23,060 nucleotides of DNA from a virus: the IMG/VR virus record IMGVR_UViG_3300030451_000383, positions 1 to 23,060 of that record; one strand, 5' to 3'. The position numbers and the translations under genes are program-made. Positions 1-19,590 of the stretch are shown here, one piece after another. How positions within the stretch are numbered: the stretch's first letter is position 1; each line of letters begins with the position of its first letter. Under the pieces are notes generated by a model. It had not been told where the DNA came from. It did no database searches and saw only the letters and a program-made list of their open reading frames with translations.

Positions 1-377
1 CCATGATGGCTATATTTAATGCACCGGTAGATTTAGCTATGCATGAAGATAGAGCAATACTTACAGCTATAGAAATAAAAAGAAAAATGAAAGAAGCAGA
101 TTTAGGTATTGATATTGGTATTGGAATTAATTCAGGTGTTGTTATGTTAGGTAACTGTGGAAGCAAAGATAGATTTGATTATACTGCTATTGGTGATGCA
201 GTTAATCTTGCAGCTAGAATGGAATCAAGTTGTAAAGAAGTAGGGGAAGATATAGTAATAGCAGAAAACACAGCACTACAAACAGATATGAAACTTGTTA
301 AGTTAGAACCTATTAAAGTAAAAGGTAAATCTAAACCTATAAAAATATATACAATAGACTTGACAAATTATTTATAG
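1..377 (+). CDS. Class III adenylate/guanylate cyclase, C-terminal part (5' end outside window)
   Basis: This is the C-terminal ~124 residues of a class III nucleotidyl cyclase catalytic domain, which makes cAMP or cGMP from ATP or GTP. It opens with MMAIFNAP, the stretch that normally follows the second metal-binding Asp, so the rest of the catalytic domain and any sensor domain lie left of the window; the ATG at position 3 is internal. The GIGINSGVVMLGN strand-loop is at visible residues 39-51. The signature DYTAIGDAVNLAAR follows, with Thr61 at the substrate-specifying position (Thr there is typical of class IIIb enzymes, usually adenylate cyclases) and the transition-state Asn68 and Arg72 both kept. 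The fragment therefore looks catalytically competent. Base composition matches the phage genes beside it. A phage-borne cyclase would be unusual; a bacterial gene at a prophage edge is the alternative. Family call very secure, origin unsure. Confidence 0.9.
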   Translation, partial: MMAIFNAPVDLAMHEDRAILTAIEIKRKMKEADLGIDIGIGINSGVVMLGNCGSKDRFDYTAIGDAVNLAARMESSCKEVGEDIVIAENTALQTDMKLVKLEPIKVKGKSKPIKIYTIDLTNYL

Positions 378-387
378 ACATTATAAT
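360..387 (+). promoter_or_regulatory. Sigma70-type promoter for hsp20
   Basis: A perfect -35 hexamer TTGACA (360-365) and a perfect -10 hexamer TATAAT (382-387) are separated by 16 bp. The predicted start site near 394-396 lies just before a structured leader. The promoter overlaps the last codons and stop of the cyclase gene, so hsp20 can be transcribed independently of it by host RNA polymerase. No sigma32-like heat-shock promoter was seen, which suggests heat control is post-transcriptional. Confidence 0.75.
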
Positions 388-395
388 ATAGACAA

Positions 396-443
396 GAGTG
401 TGCGAAAGGTCGGCACTCATAAACTTGCTTTATAAAAGGAGTT
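396..443 (+). promoter_or_regulatory. ROSE-like RNA thermometer in the hsp20 leader
   Basis: The leader folds into two hairpins. Hairpin I: GAGTGT (396-401) pairs with GGCACTC (413-418 and neighbours), continues past a bulged G402 with C403-G412 and G404-C411, and closes a 6-nt loop. Hairpin II: bases 422-431 pair with 435-443. ACUU pairs with GAGU, G427 is bulged, and CUUU pairs with AAAG across a 3-nt AUA loop. This buries the Shine-Dalgarno AGGAG (437-441), which lies 5 nt before the ATG. UUGCU (425-429) opposite AGGA with an unpaired G is the defining core of ROSE elements, which repress small heat-shock genes of alpha- and gammaproteobacteria at low temperature. Classical ROSE leaders are longer (about 70-120 nt), so this is a compact version. 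Pairings were found by eye, not by energy calculation. Confidence 0.62.
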
Positions 444-446
444 AAT

Positions 447-860
447 ATGACAAATATAAAAGCATTTGGGCAGTTCAGCCCGTTCTCTGTTGGTTTTGAT
501 GAAATGTTTAATACATTGCAAAGAGCATCAACACCAGCATCAAACTATCCACCTTACAATATTATTAAAAAAGGTGAAGCATACTTTATTGAAATGGCAG
601 TAGCAGGACATAAACAGTCTGATATTGAAATTGAAATAGAAGATAATACTTTAAGAGTCTCTGCAACTTATGGAGATAGAGATGATGATATAGAATTTGT
701 TCACAAAGGAATTTCTGAACGAGGATTTTATAAATCATTTGCTCTTGCAGAGTATGTTGAAGTTAAAAAAGCTAAGATGTCTGATGGTATTCTAGTAATT
801 GAACTAGAAAAAAACATACCAGACAGCGAAAAACCAAAAAAGATTAAGATTTCTGGTTAA
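447..860 (+). CDS. hsp20: Small heat-shock protein, Hsp20/alpha-crystallin family (IbpA-like)
   Basis: A 137-residue ATP-independent holdase chaperone that binds unfolding proteins and keeps them refoldable. The alpha-crystallin domain spans about residues 33-122, starting at the NYPPYNI strand. It includes VAGHKQSDIEI and the late signature A-x-x-x-D-G-I-L-x-I (109-118). The C-terminal tail carries the oligomer-bridging I-x-I motif (IKI, 133-135). The HKGISERGF segment is typical of the IbpA/class A branch. The ATG has a strong AAGGAG 5 nt upstream that is predicted to be masked in the leader hairpin. Hsp20 genes are known in marine T4-like phages, where they may protect virion proteins or the stressed host. 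The gene follows the cyclase on the same strand but has its own promoter, and it faces the minus-strand phage operon. Family assignment very secure; whether it is phage or host flank is open. Confidence 0.95.
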   Translation: MTNIKAFGQFSPFSVGFDEMFNTLQRASTPASNYPPYNIIKKGEAYFIEMAVAGHKQSDIEIEIEDNTLRVSATYGDRDDDIEFVHKGISERGFYKSFALAEYVEVKKAKMSDGILVIELEKNIPDSEKPKKIKISG

Positions 861-865
861 AAATA

Positions 866-980
866 GCTAAATCCTCTCAGAGGCACGGAGAAGCCCGTGG
901 TTGAATAATAGGTCTTTTTGAAGCAAAGGTATTAACTACCCTCTAAATGTTTAACCTCGGGCATACTGTGAGGTCGATTT
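866..980. other. Structured intergenic segment between convergent genes (terminators or small RNA)
   Basis: The 123-nt gap between hsp20 and the FecR gene has no convincing ORF but is dense in inverted repeats. CCTC/GAGG pairs at 873-876 with 880-883. CACGG/CCGTG pairs at 884-888 with 895-899. GGTA/TACC pairs at 928-931 with 937-940. ACCTC/GAGGT pairs at 954-958 with 970-974. A long-range option also exists: AAATC (869-873) with GATTT (976-980), next to CTC/GAG, would close the whole segment, and AGAGG (879-883) can pair with CCTCT (940-944). A run of five T follows at 914-918. The simplest reading is back-to-back termination signals for the convergent transcripts. A compact structured RNA is possible; it matches no RNA family I recognise. 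Confidence 0.4.
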
Positions 981-983
981 TCT

Positions 984-2090
984 CTAATCTCCCTGTTTTA
1001 TAGTTATTGTTGAAGAACTTCCACCATTTACTATAATTTGTGTACTCTTTCCATTTTGTACAAGGATAACAGTATAAGAACCTGTCTTATCTAAATCTAA
1101 TCTTATAGTATCTTCTAATGTTCTTAAGAAAGTTATGATATTATCTGTAGCAAAAGTATTAATCTGTGTGTTAGAATCAAAACCCATAGCTGTTCCTTTT
1201 AAATCTAGGTCAGCTTTTAATATTGTTTCAGTCTGGTCAAGTTCGTTTACATCTTGTATAATGTCTAACAAGTCTTCAAGAAAGTTTACATCTAAATAAT
1301 TTATATCAAGTTCAGTAAACTCTAACTCATCTTCTGCAAGATAGTCTACTTCTAAATCATCAAAGTCAAGGAAGTCAGCATCAAGAATATTAGAAACGCT
1401 ACCTCCATCTTCTCCCTGTACATCTACATTCTCCTGTGGTGGATTAACAATTAACATATTATCTATTAACTCTAAAGTAATATCTAATATAACTGGTTTA
1501 GTAGGTTCTGTTTCAAACATAGAAACTGTAGTAGCTTGATAGGGTCGGTTAAGCACTACCTCTCCCATAGCTGTTGCTACTAATATTTCTCCACTAGGAG
1601 TACCATCATCTTTTGGTAATAATATAATTAAAGACTCTCCAATCTCATTAACTGTGATTGTAAAATCTGTACCACGAATTGAAACATTAGCACTCGGAGT
1701 TGAGATAGCTATGTTCTCTTTGTTTATATTATTTAACTTGCCAGTAATAAACCTTGCAGTTCCACTAGCAAACTCTAGAGCCATCTTAGATTTAGATGGG
1801 TCAGGGTCATAGATAAATTCATCTATAACTAATTGTGAATGTTCTGTTAGTCTAACTCTAGTGTCGTTTAAAAATGTTATTCCTATTCTACCATTAGAAG
1901 TTTCGACATTGTCATAACTTTCTATACTAAAAGATAAGGCAGCATCATAAGGTATATCCCTTACAACTCTGCCTGTACCTTTAAGTTCTGTTACGCTTCC
2001 AATACTAGCATCCGACTGTTGTGCCACCATCGTTTTGGATAACACAGACAGTACCATTATTGCCAGTAGAAAGTATCTTGAGCCAATCAT
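984..2090 (-). CDS. Secreted FecR-domain protein with acidic repeat tract, last gene of the curli-type cassette
   Basis: A 368-residue exported protein. Residues 1-23 are a signal peptide (hydrophobic core FLLAIMVLSVL, likely cleavage after MVA). Residues about 30-185 form a FecR-type beta domain, with GSVTELKGTGRV at the start and the hallmark VSIRGTDF at 137-143. Such domains occur in periplasmic or surface proteins and are not limited to iron sensing; no sigma factor or TonB receptor is nearby. Residues 236-285 are a strikingly acidic, quasi-repeated tract (D/E-x-D/E-F/Y-L pattern), followed by a beta-rich tail. The first 86 nt overlap the end of the curlin-like gene in another frame, which implies coupled translation. 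I infer that it works with the cassette, as anchor, adaptor or exported cargo. Domain call secure, function unknown. Confidence 0.82.
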   Translation of the reverse strand: MIGSRYFLLAIMVLSVLSKTMVAQQSDASIGSVTELKGTGRVVRDIPYDAALSFSIESYDNVETSNGRIGITFLNDTRVRLTEHSQLVIDEFIYDPDPSKSKMALEFASGTARFITGKLNNINKENIAISTPSANVSIRGTDFTITVNEIGESLIILLPKDDGTPSGEILVATAMGEVVLNRPYQATTVSMFETEPTKPVILDITLELIDNMLIVNPPQENVDVQGEDGGSVSNILDADFLDFDDLEVDYLAEDELEFTELDINYLDVNFLEDLLDIIQDVNELDQTETILKADLDLKGTAMGFDSNTQINTFATDNIITFLRTLEDTIRLDLDKTGSYTVILVQNGKSTQIIVNGGSSSTITIKQGD

Positions 2091-2721
2091 TGTCTAATGT
2101 ACTTAGTTGTTGTATATTGAAAGTTCTAGAATTACCGGTTTGGTCTAAATAAAAATAACCACCAGCATAGCCACTACCTGTAAAGGTAACATTGTTGCTA
2201 TCTCCATCAACATCAACATAAGAAGTACCACTATCATAGTTTATATCAAAATCAAATGTATTACTATCGCCATTAATAATCCAGTCTAAGTCTGTATTAC
2301 TAGCCATAGCACTTGTACCTAAATCTAGTGTAAAAGTATTACTACTACCTGTAGCATCTACATTTAAATTAGAACTATCAATACCATAAGTATTTGTTGG
2401 GTCTGCTTGTATAGTAAATGTATTACTGTCTCCATCAAATTCAAAGAAACCTGTAATGTTATCTCCTAGTATATCCCCAAGAAATTTATTACTATCTCCG
2501 ATTTGATTAATATCTAAAGTTAAATTTAATCCATCTAAATCTAAAGCAGTTAAAGTTCCTGCGACAGAATTTAATCCACCCATTATATTTCCAGAACCAA
2601 GTTGTTCTAAATCTATATTAGCAGTAGCACCTGATTGGTCAACATATATTTCGTTATCAGCCCCGTATGCTGTCAATGCAGTCAGCATCACAATCAGGCT
2701 CATTAATTTCAATTTGTTCAT
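2005..2721 (-). CDS. Curlin-repeat-like secreted protein (CsgA/CsgB-type subunit candidate)
   Basis: A 238-residue protein with a signal peptide (1-20, cleavage near AYG/ADN) followed by serial beta-strand repeats. The repeat turns are G-D/S-x-N-type motifs at 42-45, 75-78, 97-100, 125-128, 151-154, 173-176, 196-199 and 220-223, spaced about 22-33 residues apart. Strands have alternating hydrophobic and polar residues such as TFTIQ and TFTLDL. Q-x-G at 29-31, 40-42, 73-75 and 193-195 matches the Q-x-G-x-x-N signature of curlins, the functional amyloid subunits exported through CsgG. Several repeats have Asp or Asn in place of Gln, so amyloid formation cannot be assumed. Two Cys lie near the C-terminus (226 and 238). 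The start is inside the end of csgG (65-nt overlap). Position directly after csgG supports it being the CsgG substrate. Confidence 0.75.
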   Translation of the reverse strand: MNKLKLMSLIVMLTALTAYGADNEIYVDQSGATANIDLEQLGSGNIMGGLNSVAGTLTALDLDGLNLTLDINQIGDSNKFLGDILGDNITGFFEFDGDSNTFTIQADPTNTYGIDSSNLNVDATGSSNTFTLDLGTSAMASNTDLDWIINGDSNTFDFDINYDSGTSYVDVDGDSNNVTFTGSGYAGGYFYLDQTGNSRTFNIQQLSTLDNDWLKILSTGNNGTVCVIQNDGGTTVGC

Positions 2722-3511
2722 ATTCCCAATACCCTCTTTCTATTCCTATTTCTATTAAGTTAAATACTCCAGTTTCTATTGCCTTTTGCAAAGCTATAGA
2801 ACCCACCTCATTCTCAGCAACGCCTCCCTCTATTTCTACTAGTTCAGTACCAGCTTCTATAAAACGGAAGACATCCTGAGAAACACTTGTGGAGACAATG
2901 CTTTTAGAAACTAATGTTTCTACTAACACTTCTCCTGTCGATACAGAAACTAATCGTAATGATATAGTTACTACATCTTCTCGGTATTGTTTGCTTGTAC
3001 CTATTCCTAAGTACCTAGCACCCATACCACCAGATTGAACATTTGTATCGTAGTTAATAACTCCACCTTGTATTAACAATCCTGCAAATAACAAAGGTTG
3101 AAGTTGTTTATCTTCATCAAAGTTTTCTCTAGTTGACCGGATTAGTTGTCGTTCTTTAGTAAGGTTATCTAAACCTACTCGTTCAACAACTCTAAAAAAT
3201 TCACCGTTAGCAGCATGTTTTAAAGCCCTGATAAGTAATGCTTCAGGAGCTTGTGTGACTGCTGTACTAAATAAAGCAAAGCTACTATTACTTTTTCTTT
3301 GCCCTGTTAAATCTTGAAAGCTATCTCTATATACTGCTATTACTGGTTTTCTTTTAGCAGGAGGTAATTCAGCTAATTGAGCTGATTGTAAATCTAAAAT
3401 ATTAGCAGGTTGTATATTTCTAGTTAGTGATAAGTCTGTATTTTTATTTAAGACTGCACAACTAGAAACTAAAATTGCCAATAGGAAGCTGTATAGTAGT
3501 CGTATCGCCAT
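2657..3511 (-). CDS. csgG: CsgG-like outer-membrane curli secretion channel lipoprotein
   Basis: A 284-residue lipoprotein of the CsgG family, whose E. coli member forms a nonameric outer-membrane pore that exports curlin subunits. The signal peptide ends in a lipobox, V15-S-S-C18, with Cys18 the predicted lipidated residue. Family landmarks are all present: DLTGQ (67-71), FSTAVTQAPEALL (81-93), NERQ-like TKERQLIR, SGGMGARYLGIG (160-171), SVSTGEVL (189-196), FRFIEAG and the AIETGVFNLI-x-x-GIERGYW end (244-262). Phe81 corresponds to the E. coli eyelet Phe56, but the Asn55 equivalent is Leu80 and there is one extra residue before it, so the constriction may be more hydrophobic. A tail of ~20 residues with Cys274 and Cys278 extends past the family core and overlaps the curlin-like gene. 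The gene starts inside csgF (50-nt overlap). Family assignment very secure. Confidence 0.95.
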   Translation of the reverse strand: MAIRLLYSFLLAILVSSCAVLNKNTDLSLTRNIQPANILDLQSAQLAELPPAKRKPVIAVYRDSFQDLTGQRKSNSSFALFSTAVTQAPEALLIRALKHAANGEFFRVVERVGLDNLTKERQLIRSTRENFDEDKQLQPLLFAGLLIQGGVINYDTNVQSGGMGARYLGIGTSKQYREDVVTISLRLVSVSTGEVLVETLVSKSIVSTSVSQDVFRFIEAGTELVEIEGGVAENEVGSIALQKAIETGVFNLIEIGIERGYWEYEQIEINEPDCDADCIDSIRG

Positions 3512-3956
3512 TACTGTCTGTTATTACCAAAGTTATAATTCCATCTTCAACACTATATGTAATAGTGTTACCTTCTAAAGTTAAAGTACCTTCTGTACTT
3601 GCTGTTTCTCCAAACAAATTTTCTACTAACTGCCTTGATAGTTGTGCATATATTCTAGATTCTAAATTTCTAATAAACCTTGCAAGTGTTGTATTTTCTT
3701 TGTCTCTTTTAATCTGGTCTTGTAAAGCTTTTATTTCTTCTTTAATAGACATCTTTCTATTAAACTCTTGATTCTCTATAGTAAGATAATGTGCTGATGT
3801 ACCTATACCACTAAAACTAGGATTCTTAAATTGATGTACCATTTCATCAGCTATATTATTTAATGACCAAAACATAATAAGCATAGTCCAAAAGAACATG
3901 CAAAATTTACAGTTTCTATCTGTTTTGTAACTATTAAATGTTGGTTTTAATTTCAT
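3462..3956 (-). CDS. csgF: CsgF-like curli assembly factor
   Basis: A 164-residue CsgF homologue. In E. coli the mature N-terminus of CsgF plugs into the CsgG channel, forming a second constriction, and the rest helps nucleate curli at the surface. Here the N-terminal hydrophobic stretch (about 19-31) is a signal sequence with likely cleavage near residue 37. The diagnostic F-x-N-P-x-F-x-G motif follows at 43-50 (FKNPSFSG), as at the mature start of E. coli CsgF. A helical middle (68-115) leads to a beta-rich end resembling the family's TSTIQ tail (TTTIQL, 152-157). The N-terminal region before the hydrophobic core is long and Cys-containing; an internal ATG at Met20 could also give a normal signal peptide, but AAGGAT about 10 nt before the first ATG favours the longer form. 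It begins 1 nt after a 46-codon membrane-protein gene. Confidence 0.88.
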   Translation of the reverse strand: MKLKPTFNSYKTDRNCKFCMFFWTMLIMFWSLNNIADEMVHQFKNPSFSGIGTSAHYLTIENQEFNRKMSIKEEIKALQDQIKRDKENTTLARFIRNLESRIYAQLSRQLVENLFGETASTEGTLTLEGNTITYSVEDGIITLVITDSNGDTTTIQLPIGNFSF

Positions 3957-3957
3957 T

Positions 3958-4098
3958 TTAAAATATCCTTGAGTTTACCCAAAATGCTAATAACATAAGC
4001 CCAAACATTCCTACTTGTACAAATGATGCTACAGTTATTTGTGTCATTGGATGCACATCTTCTAATCTATCAATCTTTCCTTTGGTCTTTTTTTCCAT
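3958..4098 (-). CDS. 46-residue single-TM small protein upstream of csgF
   Basis: A short ORF read directly from the minus strand: ATG at 4098-4096 and TAA at 3960-3958. The product begins MEKKTKGKIDRLEDVHP, a charged hydrophilic head, and continues into one hydrophobic segment (about residues 21-42, including VGMFGLMLLAFW), ending in NSRIF. The head before the TM suggests an N-in orientation. The start overlaps the end of the preceding membrane-protein gene by 29 nt, and its stop is 1 nt before the csgF ATG, so translational coupling is likely. A GAGAG lies upstream as a weak ribosome-binding site. It could be a lysis-related peptide (pinholin or antiholin-like) or an accessory of the curli cassette. 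No family recognised; coding status is supported by fit into the packed operon. Confidence 0.6.
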   Translation of the reverse strand: MEKKTKGKIDRLEDVHPMTQITVASFVQVGMFGLMLLAFWVNSRIF

Positions 4099-4357
4099 CT
4101 GCTCTCGCTAATTTATCGACATCTATAGGAACTTTTAAGGCTGTTCTTACCATTGTATCTATTCTTATCATGTCGTTATCCATTTGTCTTACTCTATCTA
4201 TTAACGCAACTATCATACCATGTTGTGTGTCTAGTTTTTTATGCACATCTGCTATTAGATGATTAAATAATTTCCAAACCATCCAACCAGCACCAACTGC
4301 AAAAGCTGCAGGAATACCTACAGTTTCTAATAAATCCATCCATTGACTGCTGTTCAT
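4070..4357 (-). CDS. Small membrane protein with one TM and helical tail, holin-like
   Basis: A 95-residue protein with one hydrophobic segment (about residues 12-33, VGIPAAFAVGAGWMVWKLF). An amphipathic, probably coiled-coil helix follows, with repeated D-x-M/V spacing (about 37-75), then a strongly charged tail. One TM followed by a polar helix is the layout of small UviB/BhlA-type holin-like proteins, but there is no specific signature. The start overlaps the stop of the preceding 3-TM gene by 1 nt (TAATG), and the end overlaps the 46-codon gene by 29 nt. Location between virion genes and the curli cassette suggests a role in cell exit. Function not assigned. Confidence 0.7.
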   Translation of the reverse strand: MNSSQWMDLLETVGIPAAFAVGAGWMVWKLFNHLIADVHKKLDTQHGMIVALIDRVRQMDNDMIRIDTMVRTALKVPIDVDKLARADGKKDQRKD

Positions 4358-4797
4358 TATCTACCCTTTGCTAAACTACCACCAAAGTACATACCTATAA
4401 TAGCTGATACTAAGTTAGTGTCTAATTGTGTAATTACAAGACCTTGAAAGGTTATCCAGTCAAATACTTCTCTACCACTTCTAAACAGTCCTCCGGGATT
4501 CCATTGTGTATAACCAACAGTAACTGCAACTTCTGGATAATACACAGCAACTAATTTAGGAAACACAACAATAGCAAATACAGAACTTAAAGCTATAATT
4601 CTTCTAGTCCAAGCAAATCCTTTATCTTTTAATCCATGGTTTCTAGCTGCTTTAGTTGCTTTTAAATTAAACTCGCCTCTGGTTATAAGTAGTTTTTCAT
4701 TTTCCATTTTAGCTTTTCTACTTTCAGCCCAGATACTCATTAATCCACCAAGCACAGTTGATGCTAACATAGTTATGATTTCAAACGGAAAACCCAT
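4357..4797 (-). CDS. Three-TM membrane protein, holin candidate
   Basis: A 146-residue protein with three hydrophobic segments: about 7-24 (IITMLASTVLGGLMSIWA), 66-87 (IIALSSVFAIVVFPKLVAVYY) and 120-142 (ending IIGMYFGGSLA). A basic, helical linker (25-65, rich in Lys and Arg) lies between the first two. The short C-terminal FGGSLAKGR resembles the FG-x-R-type ends of the 3-TM holin family found in gene transfer agents and many phages. Holins make inner-membrane holes that time lysis. Its position directly after the large internal virion protein carrying a glucosaminidase domain, with 1-nt TAATG coupling, is where lysis genes often sit. The holin role is inferred from topology and position, and no spanin pair was recognised nearby. 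Confidence 0.68.
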   Translation of the reverse strand: MGFPFEIITMLASTVLGGLMSIWAESRKAKMENEKLLITRGEFNLKATKAARNHGLKDKGFAWTRRIIALSSVFAIVVFPKLVAVYYPEVAVTVGYTQWNPGGLFRSGREVFDWITFQGLVITQLDTNLVSAIIGMYFGGSLAKGR

Positions 4798-7700
4798 TAG
4801 TCAAATGTGCCTTTTTCTAAATTACGATTGTAAACAGCAGATACTGTTCTAATATATTCTTGGTCAGTAGCATAACCAGCCTTTTTTAATTCTTCTAAAA
4901 ATTCTAAATCACTTGATGCTTCTAAAGCTTTTTTATATCTAGGAGTACCATCATCATATACTCCTGTTTTTAAAAAGTTTATATAACCATCTATATTTTC
5001 TCTAACAGAATTATAACTTCTAAAATTTGCTACTTCATCTACTAAACCTTTTCCATAATCTTCTTTTGTGAGCATTCTTGTACCTTTAAAATCTTCTCCT
5101 TTTCTTACTTTAACTCCAAAAGTATTATTATGCTCTCTAGATAAATCACTCATTCCATATCTACTTTCTACTGCAGCTTGTGCTGCTGCCATTTTTGGAA
5201 ACGGATGCCCACTATCTTTTAATATTAAATACATATCTCTAACAAAATCATCAGGGTTTTTGTTTACCATAGCATTATGAGTATGCTCCCCTTTTTCATT
5301 AAATTGTTTTTCTAATTGAGTTTTAGAATTACTTAATAAATCATTTATAGTAGTACCAAAAGAATCAACAGGTCCACCTTCATCAAAATTTACTTTAGGT
5401 TTATATTCATACTGACCCATATATTGTGTAAATTGTTTTGTTGGTTTTGATGCTTCAGAAGGATTTAATCCTGTAGTTTTTATACTTTTAAATATGTCAT
5501 TTAAAATTTTGTTAACTCCTCCTGTCGCAAAACCTAATCTATTTGCATCTTGAAAATATGTATTACCTGTAATAGGATTTTGTCTATCTATAGGGTCTTC
5601 TTCAACATTTAAAACTCTACCACCTGTTTTTTTCTGTTGTCTTTTTTCTTCTATATCTTTTTTAGTTTTTTCTTTTACACTTTCTGTATACATTTCAAAA
5701 GCACTCATATCTTCTTTAAAAATTTTATAAGTATTTTCATCATACATAACAGGTAAATCTGATAATGCTCTATCTATTCTATAAATATCAGGCATAAGCT
5801 CTCTATAAACTTTGTTATCATCTCTTTCCATCATTTTTAGTTTCATATTATCTGATATACGCAATGGGTTATATCTTTTTTGTCTTATGAAAGCTCTTTC
5901 TGTTTTACTAATATTACTATCATACATTAATTTTGCAGTATTTAATCCTAAAAAATCTGCAGATTGATTAAATTTAGCATATTTTACATAATTTTTATAG
6001 TTTAACATATTAACATCAATATAATTATCTATAAATTTTTCATATTCTAATACTTCTCCAATACCATTATTAATATTATTAGCATGTTGACTTTTCATTT
6101 TTTTGTAGTCATTACTTTTAAATTGATGAATATTTTCTAAATATTCTTTATTCATTGGAGACATTCCCCACCCAGTAGTAAACTTCATAAATTGGTCTAA
6201 CTCATAAATGTCTTGTTTATAGTATGTTTGGTCTTTACCAAAGGTTTTTGTGTAATCAAAAAATCTATCTACTGAACCGGGTAATAAAGTTTCTGTCATT
6301 AATTTACCAAAAAGAATAGGAGAATTATAAAGTTTATTTGTTGTAGGGTTTCCATAATCTACGTATTCATATCTATCACCCATAAAATTAAAACTCATAT
6401 TACCACCAGTTTTAGTTTTACCATTTGAAAATAAAAAATCTGATAAAGGTTCTTGAATCATAGATTCTCCTAAGAAAGGACTAACTGCTTCTCTAAATAA
6501 ATTATCTAATAAAGCTGTACTAAAATCTTCATTATTTATTTCATTATTAAAAAATTCATTACCTATTAACTTTACAACTTTTTTAGGATAATCATAAGCA
6601 TCCCAAGAACTTAAATTTCCTATCATAGGAGTTCCATCTTCAGCAACTGTTATTGCTATTTTAGAATTTCTCATATAATCTGGTAAGAAATCTTTGTAAG
6701 CTTCTGTTTCAGCATCAGATAAACCTGACATAGCTTGACTTGTTTTTTCAATAGCTGCTGCTCCTGTTCCTGCTACTGCTGTAAAAGAACCTAATCTTAA
6801 ACCACCTCTTTTTAAATATTCATTAGCAGCTTGATTATGTCCTAAACTTCTTAGTCTTGAAAATTCTTGAAATTCTCTTCTTGCTTGCATAATACTTCCG
6901 TAAGATATTCTTACAGATTCTGACATAAAAGAAAAGAATCTTCCCATAAATGGAACAGCTCTAACTTCTTTAAAAAATTCAGGAACTAAATCATAATTAG
7001 GTAAAGTATTTCTAACTATTCTAGCTGCTTCTTCTTCAATTTGTGTTGGAGATTTTTTTAATGCTTCTGGTAATGCATCATTTATTTTTTTAAGATTTTG
7101 TTCTTCTCTAATAAACATATTTATTTTAAAGAAGTCATCCTCTGCTATATAAGCATTTTGTGCTTTAGCAGATAATTTTTTTAAACCTATTTTTTCTGCT
7201 GCCCAATCTAAATTACCTAAAATAAAACCTTTTGGTTTTGTAGCTAAATCTCCAGCTAATGCTTGTAAATCTCTAGCAACTACTCCTTTATTTAATAAAC
7301 CTAATTCAGATAATCTTTCATGAAATTTTTGAGCATCTTTATTGTTTTTTGTTCTAGACCTTAAAATCTTTATAATTTCTCTAGTTTGTTTTACATCAAA
7401 AACATTTATACCATTTGCTAATGACATTTGAACACCACCAGTCATATTCTTTACATGAGTTGTGTGAGACCAAATAGTTTTTGCTTTTTGAGAAATTCCT
7501 TTTAATTTCATTAAATTAGTATATAATCCACCAAGGTATTTAGCATTCATTAAATTTTGTGTTAAACCTTTGTGACCATTAAAATAAGAAAGCATTTCTG
7601 GAGATGTATATTTTCCTGACAATGGACCAAAACCTTCTGGTATTACTTCTGTAAAAATTCCTTGTTGTTTTCTTCTAATATAAATACCTATACCATCTTG

Positions 7701-9623
7701 AAAAGCACCATCATAAAATTTAGCATCTTCTAAAAGTTTTGATAATTTAGTAGTTGAATGAATTATAGCTTCTGTAGGGTCATCTATTTCACCAAGTAAT
7801 TCTCTTATTGGTTTTGGTATTTGCTTTTTATTTTTTAATATTTCTCTTCTAACTCTGTCAAAACTTTCTAAATTAGCTGTAAAAGTTTCTTTTTTACCTA
7901 TCTCTTCAAAACTATTCATAACAGCTTTAGTTTCTAATAATAACTCATCAGGAGTTATATTAGGATTTTGTAGTTTAAGTTGAGATTCTATATATTCTTC
8001 TGCTCTTTTCTTTACATCATTAGTAGGTTTATAATTACCATCTTCAAAAGCTTTGTAAGACCTTCTAACATAAAAACCTAAATTATCAGCAAATATTTTT
8101 TTCATTTCAGGACTAATATAATTAGTTCCCATAAGCATTTTAGTTAAATCATCTTGATACTCTCTAGCTTTTAAAACATATTCTCTTAGTTCTTTTGGTA
8201 ATTTATTTAATTCTTTTTTAAACTGTGCAGATTGAGTTCTTCCTAAACTAATTTTACCACCTGTAATTATCGTAGGACTTCTAAAATCTGTAAATAAAAC
8301 ATAGTTTATTTGTTTTTTAATATCATCAGAAGATTTACCAGTTCTTTTAACAATATCATCAATAGTAGACTCAAGATTAAAAGCTATATTAGCTACTGTA
8401 TCTGAATGCATTTCTTTACGATTTTCTGCTCTTAAAAATCTTTCAAATAATTTATTGCTTCTAGCTCCTCTAGAAGTAAACATTTTTTTTCTAATAGTTT
8501 CAAGTGACCTTACTAATCTATTTTGTGCAAATTGTGGAGATATATTAAACAAACTAAATTTACTAGGAATAAAAGCTTCTATGTCTCCTTCTCCAGTTAC
8601 AACAGGTTCATTTTTATATTCTTTATTTTTTCTATTTTTAGTTTCTTCAAATTTTCTATTTTGTTTTGCTACTCTTAATTGAGCAGCATTTTCATTGCTT
8701 GAACTTCTAATTGCATTTAAAAATCTTTCTTGAATTTCTTTAGGTTGATTTTTAAGCTTATCTAAATTTTCTATAAAACTTTTTTTAAATCTTGAAGCAA
8801 AATCTACAGCTTTACCTGTTAAATTAAATTTTCTATTTAGAATACCTAGACCATGTCCTGCCCCTATCATTCCACCAGTAAATAATAATCCTTCTGCTAA
8901 CATATTCATTCTATCATTTAATCTATCTTTTTGAACAGATTGACCCTCTGGTAATTCTAAATATTCTTGTATATCTTCTAACATACCATCATTTTCTGGA
9001 AGAACAGCTCCTATTATTGGAGCAATATTTATTAATGCTGGAGTGCCTTCAATATCAAACATTGTTTGAACAGCAGTTTCACCTGCTATTACTTGTCTTC
9101 CAACATCTCTATTAAATATTTTTTTAAAACCTTTTTTTGATTTAGTTGCTTTTTCAGCTTTATCAAAATATTTAACACCTTTTAAAGCTTTATCTATTCC
9201 TTTAAAACCAACTACTAAATTAACAATGTCATTTGTAAATTCACCTGCTGCTGTTTCCATTTCAACTACAGAGCTGTTTAATCCATATCTTTTTTTTCTT
9301 TTTATTATTCCTTCACCATGCATAGCAACTAAAAATTCATTCAGAGCATCTTCTTGTACTTGTCTTTTTTCTTTTCTTTCAGGAGTTTCTGGTCCAGCTA
9401 CTCCATCTACTACCATTCTACCTATATCCATAGCATTATTTAAAGTAGTAGTTTGAGTTCTAGCTATAAATTTTTTAAATTTTCTTGTAGGTGTAGGTAA
9501 TATACTTTCGTATAAAGACATTTGAAGATTTGTAGGATTGTATCTTACAAAATTATAAAGATAATCAGGAACATATTTATTTTCCTGAAATTCATTTTTA
9601 TCTTCGTTTGAATTATCTGACAT
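4797..9623 (-). CDS. Giant internal virion / DNA-ejection protein with C-terminal glucosaminidase domain
   Basis: A 1608-residue protein, the largest in the window. Most of it (about 1-1330) is helical, Lys/Glu/Asn-rich and without a recognisable enzyme; one Gly-rich hydrophobic patch (near residue 250, LLFTGGMIGAGHGLGIL) could meet membrane. Residues about 1458-1608 form a FlgJ-like N-acetylglucosaminidase domain (GH73 type): AAAQAAVESRYG with candidate catalytic Glu1486, then NNTFGVK, and a YNRNL end. This suggests local peptidoglycan cutting at genome entry, as T7 gp16 does with its transglycosylase, although in gp16 the enzyme is N-terminal. Three GG-x-V motifs (TGGRV 1333-1337, FATGGV 1365-1370, FDEGGPV 1413-1419) sit in the linker just before the hydrolase. 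It starts directly after the previous stop (TAAATG) and overlaps the holin candidate by 1 nt. It may double as lysis enzyme, because no separate endolysin is visible. Confidence 0.85.
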   Translation of the reverse strand: MSDNSNEDKNEFQENKYVPDYLYNFVRYNPTNLQMSLYESILPTPTRKFKKFIARTQTTTLNNAMDIGRMVVDGVAGPETPERKEKRQVQEDALNEFLVAMHGEGIIKRKKRYGLNSSVVEMETAAGEFTNDIVNLVVGFKGIDKALKGVKYFDKAEKATKSKKGFKKIFNRDVGRQVIAGETAVQTMFDIEGTPALINIAPIIGAVLPENDGMLEDIQEYLELPEGQSVQKDRLNDRMNMLAEGLLFTGGMIGAGHGLGILNRKFNLTGKAVDFASRFKKSFIENLDKLKNQPKEIQERFLNAIRSSSNENAAQLRVAKQNRKFEETKNRKNKEYKNEPVVTGEGDIEAFIPSKFSLFNISPQFAQNRLVRSLETIRKKMFTSRGARSNKLFERFLRAENRKEMHSDTVANIAFNLESTIDDIVKRTGKSSDDIKKQINYVLFTDFRSPTIITGGKISLGRTQSAQFKKELNKLPKELREYVLKAREYQDDLTKMLMGTNYISPEMKKIFADNLGFYVRRSYKAFEDGNYKPTNDVKKRAEEYIESQLKLQNPNITPDELLLETKAVMNSFEEIGKKETFTANLESFDRVRREILKNKKQIPKPIRELLGEIDDPTEAIIHSTTKLSKLLEDAKFYDGAFQDGIGIYIRRKQQGIFTEVIPEGFGPLSGKYTSPEMLSYFNGHKGLTQNLMNAKYLGGLYTNLMKLKGISQKAKTIWSHTTHVKNMTGGVQMSLANGINVFDVKQTREIIKILRSRTKNNKDAQKFHERLSELGLLNKGVVARDLQALAGDLATKPKGFILGNLDWAAEKIGLKKLSAKAQNAYIAEDDFFKINMFIREEQNLKKINDALPEALKKSPTQIEEEAARIVRNTLPNYDLVPEFFKEVRAVPFMGRFFSFMSESVRISYGSIMQARREFQEFSRLRSLGHNQAANEYLKRGGLRLGSFTAVAGTGAAAIEKTSQAMSGLSDAETEAYKDFLPDYMRNSKIAITVAEDGTPMIGNLSSWDAYDYPKKVVKLIGNEFFNNEINNEDFSTALLDNLFREAVSPFLGESMIQEPLSDFLFSNGKTKTGGNMSFNFMGDRYEYVDYGNPTTNKLYNSPILFGKLMTETLLPGSVDRFFDYTKTFGKDQTYYKQDIYELDQFMKFTTGWGMSPMNKEYLENIHQFKSNDYKKMKSQHANNINNGIGEVLEYEKFIDNYIDVNMLNYKNYVKYAKFNQSADFLGLNTAKLMYDSNISKTERAFIRQKRYNPLRISDNMKLKMMERDDNKVYRELMPDIYRIDRALSDLPVMYDENTYKIFKEDMSAFEMYTESVKEKTKKDIEEKRQQKKTGGRVLNVEEDPIDRQNPITGNTYFQDANRLGFATGGVNKILNDIFKSIKTTGLNPSEASKPTKQFTQYMGQYEYKPKVNFDEGGPVDSFGTTINDLLSNSKTQLEKQFNEKGEHTHNAMVNKNPDDFVRDMYLILKDSGHPFPKMAAAQAAVESRYGMSDLSREHNNTFGVKVRKGEDFKGTRMLTKEDYGKGLVDEVANFRSYNSVRENIDGYINFLKTGVYDDGTPRYKKALEASSDLEFLEELKKAGYATDQEYIRTVSAVYNRNLEKGTFD

Positions 9624-15168: not shown

Positions 15169-18100
15169 TTATTCTCCTTTTAAGTTTTTAATTTTAGTCA
15201 TGAGTTCATCATAACCATCCATATCCTCTAAACCTTTTGGTTTGTGTGAATCTTTTTTAAGTTCTTCTACTTGAGTAGACAGTTCTTGAATTGCTTTTAC
15301 CATTAAAGGCATTAATGAAGCATCTCCAACTCTTTGTCTACCATCATCATCTTCCATCCATAGACCAAAACCTTCTTTTAAATTATGATTATTAATTGTT
15401 TCTTTAACTTCTTGAGCTATAAAACCATGGTTATATTTACCATTCATAACTCTTTCTTCAGAATCTTCATAGCAATTTAATTCTTGTGGAACATCTTTTG
15501 ATTTTTTCCATCTAAAAGTAACAGGTCTTAAATCATTTATGAAATCTAATCCTATTTTTTCATCTTGTATATCTTCTTTTAATCTTTCATCAGAGGGTGT
15601 ATACCAAGAAGTTTCACCAAACACTAAAGCTGAATCTGTTGAACCATATCCAACAGTAATACTATTATTTGTTGCTCCAGTTGCACTATAACCAAGAACA
15701 ACTCTACCTACTGCTCCAGAAGAACCTGCATCATTTAATTTACCAATGATTACATTTTGTCCACCAGTAGTTAAATCATCACCAGCAGAACGACCTATAA
15801 GAGTATTATTACCTGCTGTAGTTATTGAGCTACCAGCATCATCACCAATAACAACTGAAGTGTCCATTGTAGTAGCACTACTTGCAGCACCTTTTCCTAT
15901 AATAACATTACTACCACCTGTAGTAATAGCATTACCAGCTTGATAACCAACAGCAGTATTACCACTAGCAGAAGTATTAGCATTAAGAGCATACCTACCA
16001 ACAGCAGTATTATCATCGCCTGTAGCATTTAGTAAAGCTTCAGTTCCAACAGCAGTACATGAATCAGCAGCATCAGAAGCTTTCATAGCTTCGTAACCTA
16101 TCGCTACATTTCCATTTTCATTACTAGCTTCTAAAGCTCTAAAACCTACTGCTACACAAAAAGAACCAGTTGTACTGGCTTCCATAGCTTGTTCTCCCAT
16201 AGCAACATTTCTATACCCTGTTGTGGTTGCTTTTAAAGCATTACTACCAACTGCAATATTATTACTTGCTGTAGTATTAGCATTAAGAGCATCTTTACCT
16301 ATAGCGACATTAGAAACGCCACTTGTGTTTGCCCTTAAAGAATGTTTACCTACTGCTACATTTTCACTACCTGTATTGTTTTCTAATGCTTCAACACCTA
16401 TAGCAACATTATCTGCTCCTGATGTAGTGTCTAGTAAAGCTGCTCTACCTATAGCAACATTATCAGTACCAGTTGTTAGTTTACCCATAGCTTCATAACC
16501 AATACCAGTATTATTAGTTCCTGTAGTAATTGCATCAGCACACTCAGCACCTATTGCTGTGTTCTGCGCCCCTGTAGTGTTTGCAAATAATGCTTGATAA
16601 CCAACTGCTACATTATTGTCTGCTGTAGTGTTTGCTTTTAAGGCTTGCATACCAATAGCTGTATTTTGTGAACCTGTGCTGTTAGTACCTAATGTAGCTC
16701 CAGTAGCACCATCAGAACCACCAACAGCAACATTATGTGTTCCAGTTGTGTTATTTGTTAAAGCTAAAGCTCCTACTGCTGTATTTTCTGCACCTGTGGT
16801 GTTTGCTGCTAATGCTAATCTACCTACACCAACATTTAATGTACCACTTGTAAGTGCATCTAATGCAGAATTACCTAAAGCAGTATTATAGTTACCTGTT
16901 ACAACACCACTAGCTACTGAATCATCACCTATAGCTGTATTACCTGCACCAGTTGTTAAAGCTCCTAAAGAATTAACACCGATACCAACATTTCCATTTC
17001 CTGTAGTACAAGCATCTAAAGAATTAGAGCCAACTGCAACATTTTCTGAACCCGTAGTATTAGATTCCATAGAACTTCTACCTATAGCAACATTATTACT
17101 TGCTGTTGTATTTGAATCTAATGCTCTTCTACCTAGAGCAACATTATAATCACCTGTTGTATTTGTATCTAATGCTCTATAACCCATAGCAACATTGTAA
17201 GAACCTGTAGTAATTGATAATCCAGCATCTGCTCCTATTGCTGTATTTTCAGAACCTGTTGTATTTGCTCCTAAAGAACGATAGCCAACTGTTGTATTAT
17301 AACTAGCAGTAGTATTAGCATCTAAAGCATTAGCTCCAACTGCTGTGTTGTATTGCCCTTCTGTATTAGCATCCATAGCAGCATAACCAATAGCTGTGTT
17401 TCTTTCTGCTGTTGTGTTTGTGTCTAGTGCATAAGTTCCTACTGCTACATTTAAAGCACCAGTAGTATTGTCATTTAAAGCATCTGAACCTATAGCAATA
17501 TTAGCATTGGCTGTAGTATTTGCTGCTAAAGCACCAGAACCTACTGCTGTATTATTATCGCCAGTAGTGTTTGCATTTAAAGAACTTAAACCAACACCAG
17601 TATTATCTGAACCAGTTGTGTTAGCAAACATACTATTAGTACCCATAGCAGTATTATCATCACCACTTGTTAAATTATTAAAAGCTTGATGTCCTAAACC
17701 TGTATTATTAGAAGCTGAAGATAAAGTACCTGTACCAGCATCATTACTAATAAGTAAGCTATTTGAAAAATTTGTTATGTTGTATTTAATACCTACACCA
17801 TTAATAAGACCACTTGACACAGTAATACCATCAGAATCTATAACAACTCTTTCAGTACCACCAGTATCAAATCTTATTTTATCTTCATCACTTGATTCTT
17901 CTACTTGTATTTTTGTATCTGCATCTGCATCAGTAATTTCATTAGTTGTAGCACCTGATACTGAAAAGTCTAAAGTACCATCACTATCTTGATAAGTGAC
18001 TGTAATACCTGATTCAGTATTTGAAGATACCATAGCTCCTACAGTATCTTGAATAACTTCTGAAAGGTCAATGTTTGCAGTACCATCAAAGCTTACGCCA

Positions 18101-19590
18101 TGTATTGTTCTTGCAGTTTCTAAAGCTGTTGCAGTAGCTGCATTACCTGTAGTATCTTGGTTAAGTGTTCCAACTGTAAAGTCTAATGTTCCATCTCCAT
18201 CTTCGTAAGCTACTGTAATACCACTTTCAGTATTACTAGATACCATAGCTCCTACAATATCTTGAACTTGTTCTGTAGTAAGAGTCGCTGAAATTTTAGA
18301 ATCTAATTGTGTTTGTATATTAGATGTAACACCATCAAGATAATCAAATTCAGTAGATGTAACTCCTGTAGCATGTAAAGTATCTAAATAATTTAATTCT
18401 GTTACACTACCAGTATATCCATCTAAAACATTTATTTCTGCAGCAGTCGCTGTAACTCCATCTAATATATTTAACTCTGCTGTCGTGCTTGTAACACCAT
18501 CTAGTATATTTAATTCGGCTGTGGTACTTGTAACACCATCAAGTAAGTTAAGCTCTGCAGCAGTTGATGTAACTCCATCAAGTATGTTTAACTCTGCTGT
18601 AGTAGCTGTTACACCATCTAGTATATTAAGTTCTGCAGCAGTTGATGTTGTTGCTAAACTTACAGCTCCACTAGAAACTGTAAAGTCAGCACTATCAAAT
18701 GAAGCAACACCTTTATTACTTGTTGTTGCATCTTCACCAGCAATAGTAATTGTATTACTTGAAGCAGAAGTATCAATACCTTCGCCACCTGCAATAGTTA
18801 ATGTTTCACTATCTAAGTCTATTGCTATTGTGCCACTATCTGTAGTAGCATCTAAATCTTGTGCTGTAACCTGTGAATCTACATAAGCTTTAATAGATTG
18901 TTGAGAAGCAATACCTGTAGCACTATTAGAAGACATATCATCTTCATCAAGAAAAGCTTTACCATCTAATATATTTAATTCGGCTGCTGTAGATGTTACA
19001 CCATCCATAATATTTAATTCAGCAGTAGTTGCAGTTACTCCATCCATAATGTTTAACTCTGCTGTAGTTGCAGTAACTCCATCAAGTATATTAAGTTCTG
19101 CTGCTGTAGATGTTACTCCATCAAGAATATTAAGCTCGGCTGCTGTGGATGTCACTCCATCTAATATGTTTAGTTCAGCAGCAGTTGATGTAATTGCTGT
19201 ACCATTAAAGTTTATAGCATCTACATAAGCTGTACCATCTATATATAAATCTTTAAATTCAAGTGAGCTAGTACCTAAATCAATATCATTATCAGTAACA
19301 GGAACAATAGCTCCATCAGCTATGTAAAGTTGTTGTACTGAGCTACTTGATACTTCTACATAAAATTCAATGTAATTATTTGATGTATCTATTAAAACTT
19401 TGTTGTTTGGAGAAGTTTCTCCTGCATCTCCTATTAATCCTATAACAGGACCAGAGGCTGCTGTGCCATCATGTGTGTGTCCTGTAGAATTATGAAATGC
19501 ATTAACTAACTGATTATATTCATTATTGAATAAAGCAGCAGTAATTGTATCTCCATCTGCAAATGAACTTTGTCTTGTATATCCTGCCAT
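15169..19590 (-). CDS. Tail fibre with two repeat arrays and C-terminal S74 intramolecular chaperone
   Basis: A 1473-residue trimeric-fibre-type protein. Residues 1-130 form a probable virion-binding head ([19 protein letters not shown] and HTHDGTAA are typical of phage fibres). Two blocks of a 13-residue [15 protein letters not shown] repeat occupy about 134-210 and 315-421. Two near-identical segments containing [14 protein letters not shown] lie at about 447-472 and 518-543. Residues 629-1315 hold about 40 tandem repeats of ~17 residues (N-T/V-A-V/I-G-x-x-A-L-x-x-N-T-T-G-x-x), resembling the left-handed beta-roll head of YadA-type adhesins. Residues ~1330-1473 are a Peptidase_S74 domain: [11 protein letters not shown] with the Ser1333-Asp1334 self-cleavage site, [14 protein letters not shown] and a terminal coiled coil. 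These domains trimerise the fibre and then cut themselves off. The fibre likely recognises the host surface. Ribosome-binding site AGGAG lies inside the end of the preceding gene. Confidence 0.93.
15646..17706 (-). repeat. About 40 tandem 51-nt (17-residue) coding repeats in the tail fibre
   Basis: The unit encodes N-T/V-A-V/I-G-x-x-A-L-x-x-N-T-T-G-x-x. I count 39-40 copies over residues 629-1315, with a few length variants, such as 16-residue units and one of about 23 residues near residue 970. Copies are diverged at the DNA level but share recurrent words, so the array could lengthen or shorten by recombination. Confidence 0.88.
18328..18648 (-). repeat. Second block of 39-nt (13-residue) ELNILDGV repeats
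   Basis: Six clear copies of [15 protein letters not shown], followed by degenerate ones (VTELNYLD and TEFDYLDGV), at fibre residues 315-421. Probably a trimeric stalk. Confidence 0.85.
18961..19191 (-). repeat. First block of 39-nt (13-residue) ELNILDGV repeats
   Basis: Six tandem copies at fibre residues 134-210, two of them with Met replacing Leu (ELNIMDGV). The same unit reappears about 100 residues further on, indicating block duplication within the gene. Confidence 0.87.

What the first reader, a model, noticed from the sequence alone, without database searches (positions are those of the whole stretch)
984..3956. Curli-type secretion cassette (CsgF-CsgG-curlin repeat-FecR) at the end of a phage late operon
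Seen: csgF, csgG, a curlin-repeat protein and a FecR-domain protein are encoded on the virion-gene strand without a break after the holin candidates. No CsgE, CsgC or CsgD is visible. Known: CsgG is an outer-membrane pore, CsgF gates it, and curlins are amyloid subunits; csgG/csgF-like genes have been noted in marine phage genomes. Inference: a phage carrying pore, gate, candidate substrate and a fourth exported partner is a complete minimal export system made late in infection. It could perforate the outer membrane at lysis in place of spanins, coat cells to exclude superinfecting phage, or glue cells or debris together to aid spread.
Basis: partly seen in the sequence, partly recalled or inferred. 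Interest (0 to 1): 0.9.

Follow-up and report, generated by a model that had tools for sequence, protein, structure and literature searches.

The report
Curli-type secretion module in marine phage
A virus that probably infects the ocean's commonest bacteria (SAR11) carries a full mini-kit for exporting curli-like sticky fibres; this kit was already known from other marine viruses, but here it sits in a further virus lineage, always with two extra genes, and sister viruses carry a different export kit in exactly the same slot.

Summary
In detail: csgF, csgG, a curlin-repeat gene and a FecR-domain gene lie in that order on the virion-gene strand, with overlapping ends (50, 65 and 86 nt). The contig is a phage of the HTVC103P type of SAR11 podoviruses. 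The module is not new: HTVC008M, Melnitz and HTVC023P-type phages carry it, and Wittmers et al. 2022 described CsgF-CsgG-CsgA/B-FecR-cyclase. I did not find it reported for HTVC103P-type phages. Further results here: (1) a small protein, p95, precedes csgF in every testable phage locus (174 of 174) and was never seen away from the module. (2) The cyclase belongs to the module: 102 of 108 csg+ loci have it, against 0 of 42 testable csg- sisters. (3) Caulobacteraceae MAG contigs hold csgF-csgG-curlin-curlin-fecR-cyclase, so FecR and the cyclase also occur in a bacterial operon. (4) In the same slot, sister phages carry a non-homologous export module; the two never co-occur. Most likely function: late export of curlin-like fibres onto the infected cell. 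Replacing spanins is not supported as a general role, because isolates without csg lyse their hosts and csg+ phages keep lysis genes, but an auxiliary lysis role is not excluded.

The parts
3462..3956 (-). csgF (164 aa): signal peptide, CsgF neck-binding motif FKNPSFSG (F43, P46, F48, G50 invariant in 12 phage CsgFs)
   Evidence: Pfam PF10614 E 2e-20; phrog_35372; alignment A4
2657..3511 (-). csgG (284 aa): lipoprotein (invariant Cys18) outer-membrane pore
   Evidence: Pfam PF03783 E 6e-50; PDB CsgG E 3e-44; alignment A1
2005..2721 (-). curlin-repeat protein (238 aa): signal peptide, about 8 strand-turn units, C-terminal Cys pair (57 of 57); likely exported substrate
   Evidence: (AlphaFold2 all-beta, pLDDT 81)
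984..2090 (-). FecR-domain exported protein (368 aa): signal peptide, FecR domain, acidic linker, beta-rich C-terminus
   Evidence: Pfam FecR E 4e-10; phrog_37870 E 1e-74; weak match to surface adhesin Lsa33; alignments
4070..4357 (-). p95: hydrophobic segment plus coiled-coil protein, constant partner of csg in phages (1 or 2 copies)
   Evidence: phrog_18771; 174 of 174 phage csg loci with upstream sequence
3958..4098 (-). p46: 46-aa single-TM protein just before csgF; related segments serve as the CsgF N-terminus in some relatives; not exclusive to csg
3..377 (+). 3' end of the CHASE2-adenylate/guanylate cyclase gene (full 583-aa copy at record 51108-52859)
   Evidence: Pfam Guanylate_cyc E 3e-11; full copy CHASE2 1e-24 and cyclase 1e-20; 102 of 108 csg+ loci, 0 of 42 alternative loci
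447..860 (+). Hsp20 gene; conserved marker at the edge of the exchangeable slot, not part of the module
   Evidence: Pfam HSP20 E 2e-16; window 341-983 is 96% identical to csg- sister L092 and the identity ends at the fecR stop
4357..4797 (-). p146: holin-like membrane protein by position and TM segments; kept in csg+ and csg- phages
   Evidence: 59% identical homologue in HTVC104P

Best explanation
This is a phage-carried type VIII (curli) secretion module. Shown by sequence: an outer-membrane CsgG lipoprotein pore, a CsgF with the pore-neck motif, a Sec-exported curlin-repeat substrate, an exported FecR-domain protein, a constant phage-specific membrane/coiled-coil partner (p95) and a CHASE2 cyclase. 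Inferred: the genes are expressed with the virion genes late in infection, CsgG-CsgF forms the pore, the curlin protein is secreted through it and assembles on the infected cell as a curli-like fibre, and the FecR protein is a periplasmic or surface accessory, not a sigma-factor regulator. The fibre or coat then changes the surface of the dying cell or its debris (blocking other phages, or holding cells together). The phage lineage probably obtained the module from an alphaproteobacterial operon of csgF-csgG-curlin-curlin-fecR-cyclase type, directly or through other phages.
For: Family matches. Fixed order in about 200 phage loci. Median Ka/Ks about 0.1-0.2 for p95, csgF, csgG, curlin, fecR and cyclase: the substrate and accessories are maintained as well as the pore. 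Curlin unit signal and all-beta model. Conserved overlaps of about 53, 65 and 86 nt suggest coupled translation. Cyclase gained and lost with csg although Hsp20 lies between them on the other strand. Caulobacteraceae MAG contigs with csgF-csgG-curlin-curlin-fecR-cyclase. FecR relatives in other Alphaproteobacteria are mostly much longer proteins, many of 700-830 aa, and the protein weakly matches a surface adhesin. Expression in marine metatranscriptomes is reported for related modules (PMC9599517).
Against: No fibre has ever been seen; the Melnitz authors saw no clumping in cytograms or TEM (PMC9004378). CsgE, which speeds curli export, is absent. The curlin signal is weak in Pfam, and the Foldseek search gave no PDB match at E <= 0.001. 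AlphaFold gave no usable model of the FecR protein. Late expression is inferred from position only.
Confidence: 0.55

Rival explanations
1. The module helps lysis: CsgG pores open the outer membrane, with p95 as an inner-membrane partner, in place of or beside spanins (first reader; pinholin/secretin idea of the Melnitz paper).
For: It sits next to holin-like and lysozyme genes; CsgG is the only clear lipoprotein gene in the record; the alternative module in the same slot carries a TM/coiled-coil protein with an Rz-like spanin match (phrog_739, E 2e-6).
Against: HTVC103P and HTVC104P lack csg and are lytic isolates; csg+ phages keep holin-like genes (101 of 107) and often a GH24 lysozyme; a lysis pore would not explain purifying selection on curlin, FecR protein and cyclase; p95 and the Rz-like protein are not detectably related.
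Confidence: 0.17
2. An open CsgG-CsgF pore lets the infected cell take up large nutrients, as proposed for pelagimyophages (PMC7029224) and HTVC023P-type phages (PMC9599517).
For: No CsgE gate is encoded; CsgG forms a pore.
Against: Does not need curlin or CsgF, both retained under purifying selection; a position among late genes is a poor time for uptake.
Confidence: 0.07
3. FecR and cyclase are regulators that switch the module on (iron or cAMP control), as in PMC9599517.
For: FecR domain and cyclase domain are present; the cyclase tracks csg closely.
Against: The FecR protein has an N-terminal signal peptide and no cytoplasmic anti-sigma region; its best annotated relatives are surface or long exported proteins. 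The gene order recurs in a bacterial operon. A regulatory role for the cyclase itself stays open.
Confidence: 0.15
4. A bacterial operon wrongly joined to a phage contig, or a non-functional passenger.
For: The two ends of the record are diverged copies of one region.
Against: Same order within phage genes in about 200 loci and in sequenced isolates HTVC008M and Melnitz; low Ka/Ks.
Confidence: 0.02

Closest known systems
Pelagiphage T8SS module of HTVC023P-type phages and pelagimyophages (Wittmers et al. 2022, PMC9599517; HTVC008M NC_020484; Zaragoza-Solas et al. 2020, PMC7029224)
   Same: CsgF, CsgG, curlin repeat protein, FecR and cyclase in the same order; no CsgE or CsgC; upstream small protein gene(s)
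   Different: Here in an HTVC103P-type phage; no second curlin gene seen after fecR; cyclase on the opposite strand behind Hsp20; much longer gene overlaps than in HTVC008M
Methylophilales phage Melnitz curli genes (PMC9004378; MZ577097)
   Same: csgF, csgG, curlin repeat protein, FecR-domain gene and cyclase, preceded by two p95 relatives
   Different: A T4-like phage of OM43 bacteria; it has a second curlin-repeat gene
Caulobacteraceae MAG operon (L204, L205)
   Same: csgF-csgG-curlin-curlin-fecR-CHASE2 cyclase
   Different: Two curlin genes, no p95, flanked by genes of bacterial type
E. coli curli system (csgBAC-csgDEFG)
   Same: CsgG and CsgF homologous; curlin-type repeats
   Different: No CsgE, CsgC, or separate CsgA/CsgB pair; FecR protein, cyclase and p95 added

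Membership tests
Type VIII secretion (curli) system | CsgG lipoprotein pore | tested here: met
   PF03783 E 6e-50, PDB CsgG E 3e-44; invariant lipobox Cys
Type VIII secretion (curli) system | CsgF with the N-terminal pore-binding motif | tested here: met
   PF10614 E 2e-20; F-x-N-P-x-F-x-G region aligned with E. coli CsgF
Type VIII secretion (curli) system | Exported substrate with curlin repeats | tested here: met
   Unit matrix 19.5 against 3.1 +/- 2.9 in shuffles; NCBIfam CsgA 0.002; Pfam weak
Type VIII secretion (curli) system | CsgE periplasmic gate | tested here: not met
   No PF10627 match in the record, five related phage records or the two myophages; E. coli control positive. Published work says export can occur without it (PMC7029224)
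Type VIII secretion (curli) system | Amyloid fibre on the cell surface | not testable with these tools
   Needs expression and dye or EM assay
Pelagiphage T8SS module | Order csgF-csgG-curlin-fecR with cyclase | tested here: met
Pelagiphage T8SS module | 'Histidine kinase' gene before csgF | tested here: inconclusive
   The gene there is p95, 95 aa with no kinase match in Pfam.
FecR anti-sigma regulator | Cytoplasmic N-terminal region, TM, periplasmic FecR domain, partner sigma factor | tested here: not met
   Signal peptide then FecR domain directly; no such partner gene beside it
Spanin | Inner-membrane coiled-coil protein plus outer-membrane lipoprotein in lysis | tested here: inconclusive
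   p95 has a hydrophobic segment and coiled coil and CsgG is a lipoprotein, but p95 has no spanin family match and csg- relatives are lytic
HTVC103P-type pelagiphage | TerL and tail proteins closest to HTVC103P/104P/115P | tested here: met
   TerL 64-66% to HTVC115P/103P/104P, next best 48%; tail protein 44-45%

The most novel reading that the evidence does not exclude
The csg module and the alternative module (Asn/Thr-rich secreted protein, large secreted acidic protein, TM/coiled-coil protein) are two unrelated, interchangeable late export kits that do the same job for SAR11 phages. They occupy the same slot, never co-occur (0 of 226 csg+ loci carry the alternative, 0 of 82 alternative loci carry csgG; 16 and 8 long records searched whole also exclusive), both export a low-complexity or repeat protein plus an acidic-linker protein, and each has a membrane/coiled-coil partner. 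If true, marine phages commonly build a protein coat on the infected cell in more than one way.
Probability: 0.3. Interest if true: 0.75.

Novelty: new member of a known kind. Interest (0 to 1): 0.5.

Why it matters
[quoted passage not shown] The new comparisons make the function testable: they define the module (p95 and cyclase included), point to a bacterial operon of the same make-up, and supply nearly identical phages that differ by csg versus another export kit.

Tried and rejected
FecR C-terminus as a curlin repeat: the ending looked curlin-like (TITIKQGD), but the matrix gave p 0.24 and profile comparison under 1% probability; rejected. FecR structure: pLDDT 48, not usable. Curlin fold search: only beta-helix proteins at E > 0.02, nothing specific. 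p95 related to the alternative module's Rz-like protein: no. RNA element near the genes: no Rfam match. Promoter and terminator scan: no more than shuffles. A 71-aa HTVC104P protein was considered as an outer spanin; it has two later cysteines and no firm lipobox, so undecided.

Full report
OBSERVATION. The four genes are present at the stated coordinates, all on the minus strand: csgF 3956-3462, csgG 3511-2657, curlin-like 2721-2005, FecR-domain 2090-984. Pfam gives CsgF E 2e-20, CsgG E 6e-50 and FecR E 4e-10; the curlin repeat is only 0.062 in this copy. CsgG aligns with solved E. coli CsgG at E 3e-44, from the constriction region through the barrel-hairpin regions. The loop of the E. coli constriction is rewritten: Tyr51 and Asn55 are not kept, and Phe78 is invariant in phage CsgGs. 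Pfam and NCBIfam support the curlin call weakly, but a position matrix built from curlin units of bacteria, pelagimyophages and related contigs scores 19.5 against 3.1 +/- 2.9 in shuffled copies, none of 500 reaching it. AlphaFold2 makes it all-beta with pLDDT 81, with no close PDB match. The curlin C-terminal cysteine pair is present in 57 of 57 relatives.

WHICH PHAGE. The window is the first 23 kb of a 53.9-kb virus record. Its terminase is 64-66% identical to HTVC115P, HTVC103P and HTVC104P and at most 48% to others; its tail protein agrees. It is thus an HTVC103P-type phage, a group described as infecting SAR11 and sharing HMO-2011-type structural genes (PMC8528129). The two ends of the record are diverged copies of the same cyclase-Hsp20-FecR region (81% identity), so it is near-complete but joined from two strains.

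MODULE LIMITS. In IMG/VR the order p95-(p46)-csgF-csgG-curlin-fecR-cyclase recurs in about 200 loci. Of 176 csg loci with enough upstream sequence, 174 have p95; the two without are bacterial. All 12 contigs with p95 but no csgG end within about 630 nt of p95. HTVC008M and Melnitz have two p95 relatives before csgF. p95 is 95 aa with a hydrophobic segment and a coiled coil and no kinase match. It is probably the 'histidine kinase' of PMC9599517, but I could not compare sequences. The CHASE2-cyclase (full copy CHASE2 E 1e-24, cyclase E 1e-20) is present in 102 of 108 csg+ loci with enough sequence and in none of 42 csg- loci that span the site. Gene overlaps are conserved: medians 53, 65 and 86 nt over 127-146 loci, so the signal-peptide codons of each downstream gene lie inside the end of the gene before. 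Median Ka/Ks is about 0.10-0.19 for p95, csgF, csgG, curlin, fecR and cyclase; overlapping frames and high Ks make these rough.

ORIGIN. A scan of bacterial genomes found two Caulobacteraceae MAG contigs (82 and 32 kb) with flanking genes of bacterial type and csgF-csgG-curlin-curlin-fecR-cyclase, without p95. So FecR and the cyclase are not phage additions, contrary to the statement in PMC9599517 that they are not within bacterial T8SS operons. This operon type looks rare: within the family only these two of 199 genomes had the full-length FecR protein, and in 385 genomes of the class one did, while 6 had a CsgG of this kind. All 83 phage-type CsgGs form one clade (support 0.997), and CsgGs of two groups of HTVC023P-type contigs nest inside the HTVC103P-type ones, implying at least two transfers between phage lineages. 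Several 'bacterial' hits in MAGs labelled Pelagibacter, Maricaulis and Flavobacteriaceae look like phage contigs.

THE SLOT. Isolates HTVC103P and HTVC104P lack csg, and in them Hsp20 directly follows the large virion gene. In other close relatives the same place, between the lysozyme/holin-like genes and Hsp20 or nrdB, holds another module: an Asn/Thr-rich secreted protein (mean 33% Asn and 25% Thr in residues 31-220, 70 copies), a large secreted protein with an acidic linker, and a TM/coiled-coil protein with an Rz-like match. The swap is recent: csg- L092 and this window share 96% identity over window 341-983, ending at the fecR stop and within the last codons of the cyclase, and L105/L107 are 97% identical next to the swap. 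The modules never co-occur: 0 of 226 csg+ loci and 0 of 82 alternative loci; whole-record searches of 16 csg+ and 8 alternative records agree. Related proteins occur in csg- isolates Mosig, HTVC033P and HTVC023P and were not found in csg+ HTVC008M or Melnitz. A third state, neither module, exists (HTVC103P). Among 18 terminase-selected records of at least 20 kb, 4 carry CsgG; many are fragments.

MECHANISM. The best-supported reading is late export of a curlin-like fibre. Shown by sequence: pore, pore-neck peptide, exported repeat protein, exported FecR protein, selection on all parts. Inferred: timing, fibre formation, benefit. The FecR protein has a signal peptide followed at once by the FecR domain, an acidic linker and a beta-rich end, and resembles surface proteins, so I treat it as an accessory or surface part, not a regulator. 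Lysis in place of spanins is not supported as a general role, but an auxiliary lysis role remains possible because CsgG is the only clear lipoprotein gene in the record and the rival module has an Rz-like protein.

KNOWN OR NEW. The cassette is known from PMC7029224, PMC9599517 and PMC9004378 and from annotated HTVC008M and Melnitz records. New here as far as I could find: the HTVC103P-type carrier (no curli mention in PMC8528129 or PMC9038755), p95 as constant partner, the cyclase as a module member by co-loss, the Caulobacteraceae operon with FecR and cyclase, and the mutually exclusive second export module.

Noticed in passing
L105:5872-9742 and 77 loci: Alternative three- to four-gene export module in the csg slot: Asn/Thr-rich secreted protein with a conserved C-terminal domain, large secreted protein with acidic linker, TM/coiled-coil Rz-like protein; function unknown.
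   Followed up: partly
window 1-983 and record 52823-53341: Both contig ends cover the same cyclase-Hsp20-FecR region at about 81% identity: the record joins two strains.
   Followed up: partly
window 861-983: Convergent intergenic stretch between Hsp20 and fecR with apparent hairpins, kept at 96-98% in csg+ and csg- relatives; no Rfam match.
   Followed up: no
window 4797-9623: 1608-aa virion-type protein ends in a glucosaminidase domain (Pfam E 8e-23).
   Followed up: no
window 15169-19590: 1473-aa tail-fibre-like protein with long near-repeats ([12 protein letters not shown], and NTTG/NTAIG units) and a Peptidase_S74 chaperone end.
   Followed up: no
L201, L202, L203, L206, L209: MAG contigs labelled Maricaulis, Pelagibacter or Flavobacteriaceae carry the phage-type csg module with p95 and appear to be misbinned phage contigs.
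   Followed up: partly
GenBank OR851715: A 1,499-base record named Salmonella phage S.Kent 1-2-1 encodes CsgG; likely a bacterial fragment.
   Followed up: no
L086:10588-11913: HTVC008M gp018 joins a PA14 domain to curlin repeats: a possible second, adhesive substrate.
   Followed up: no
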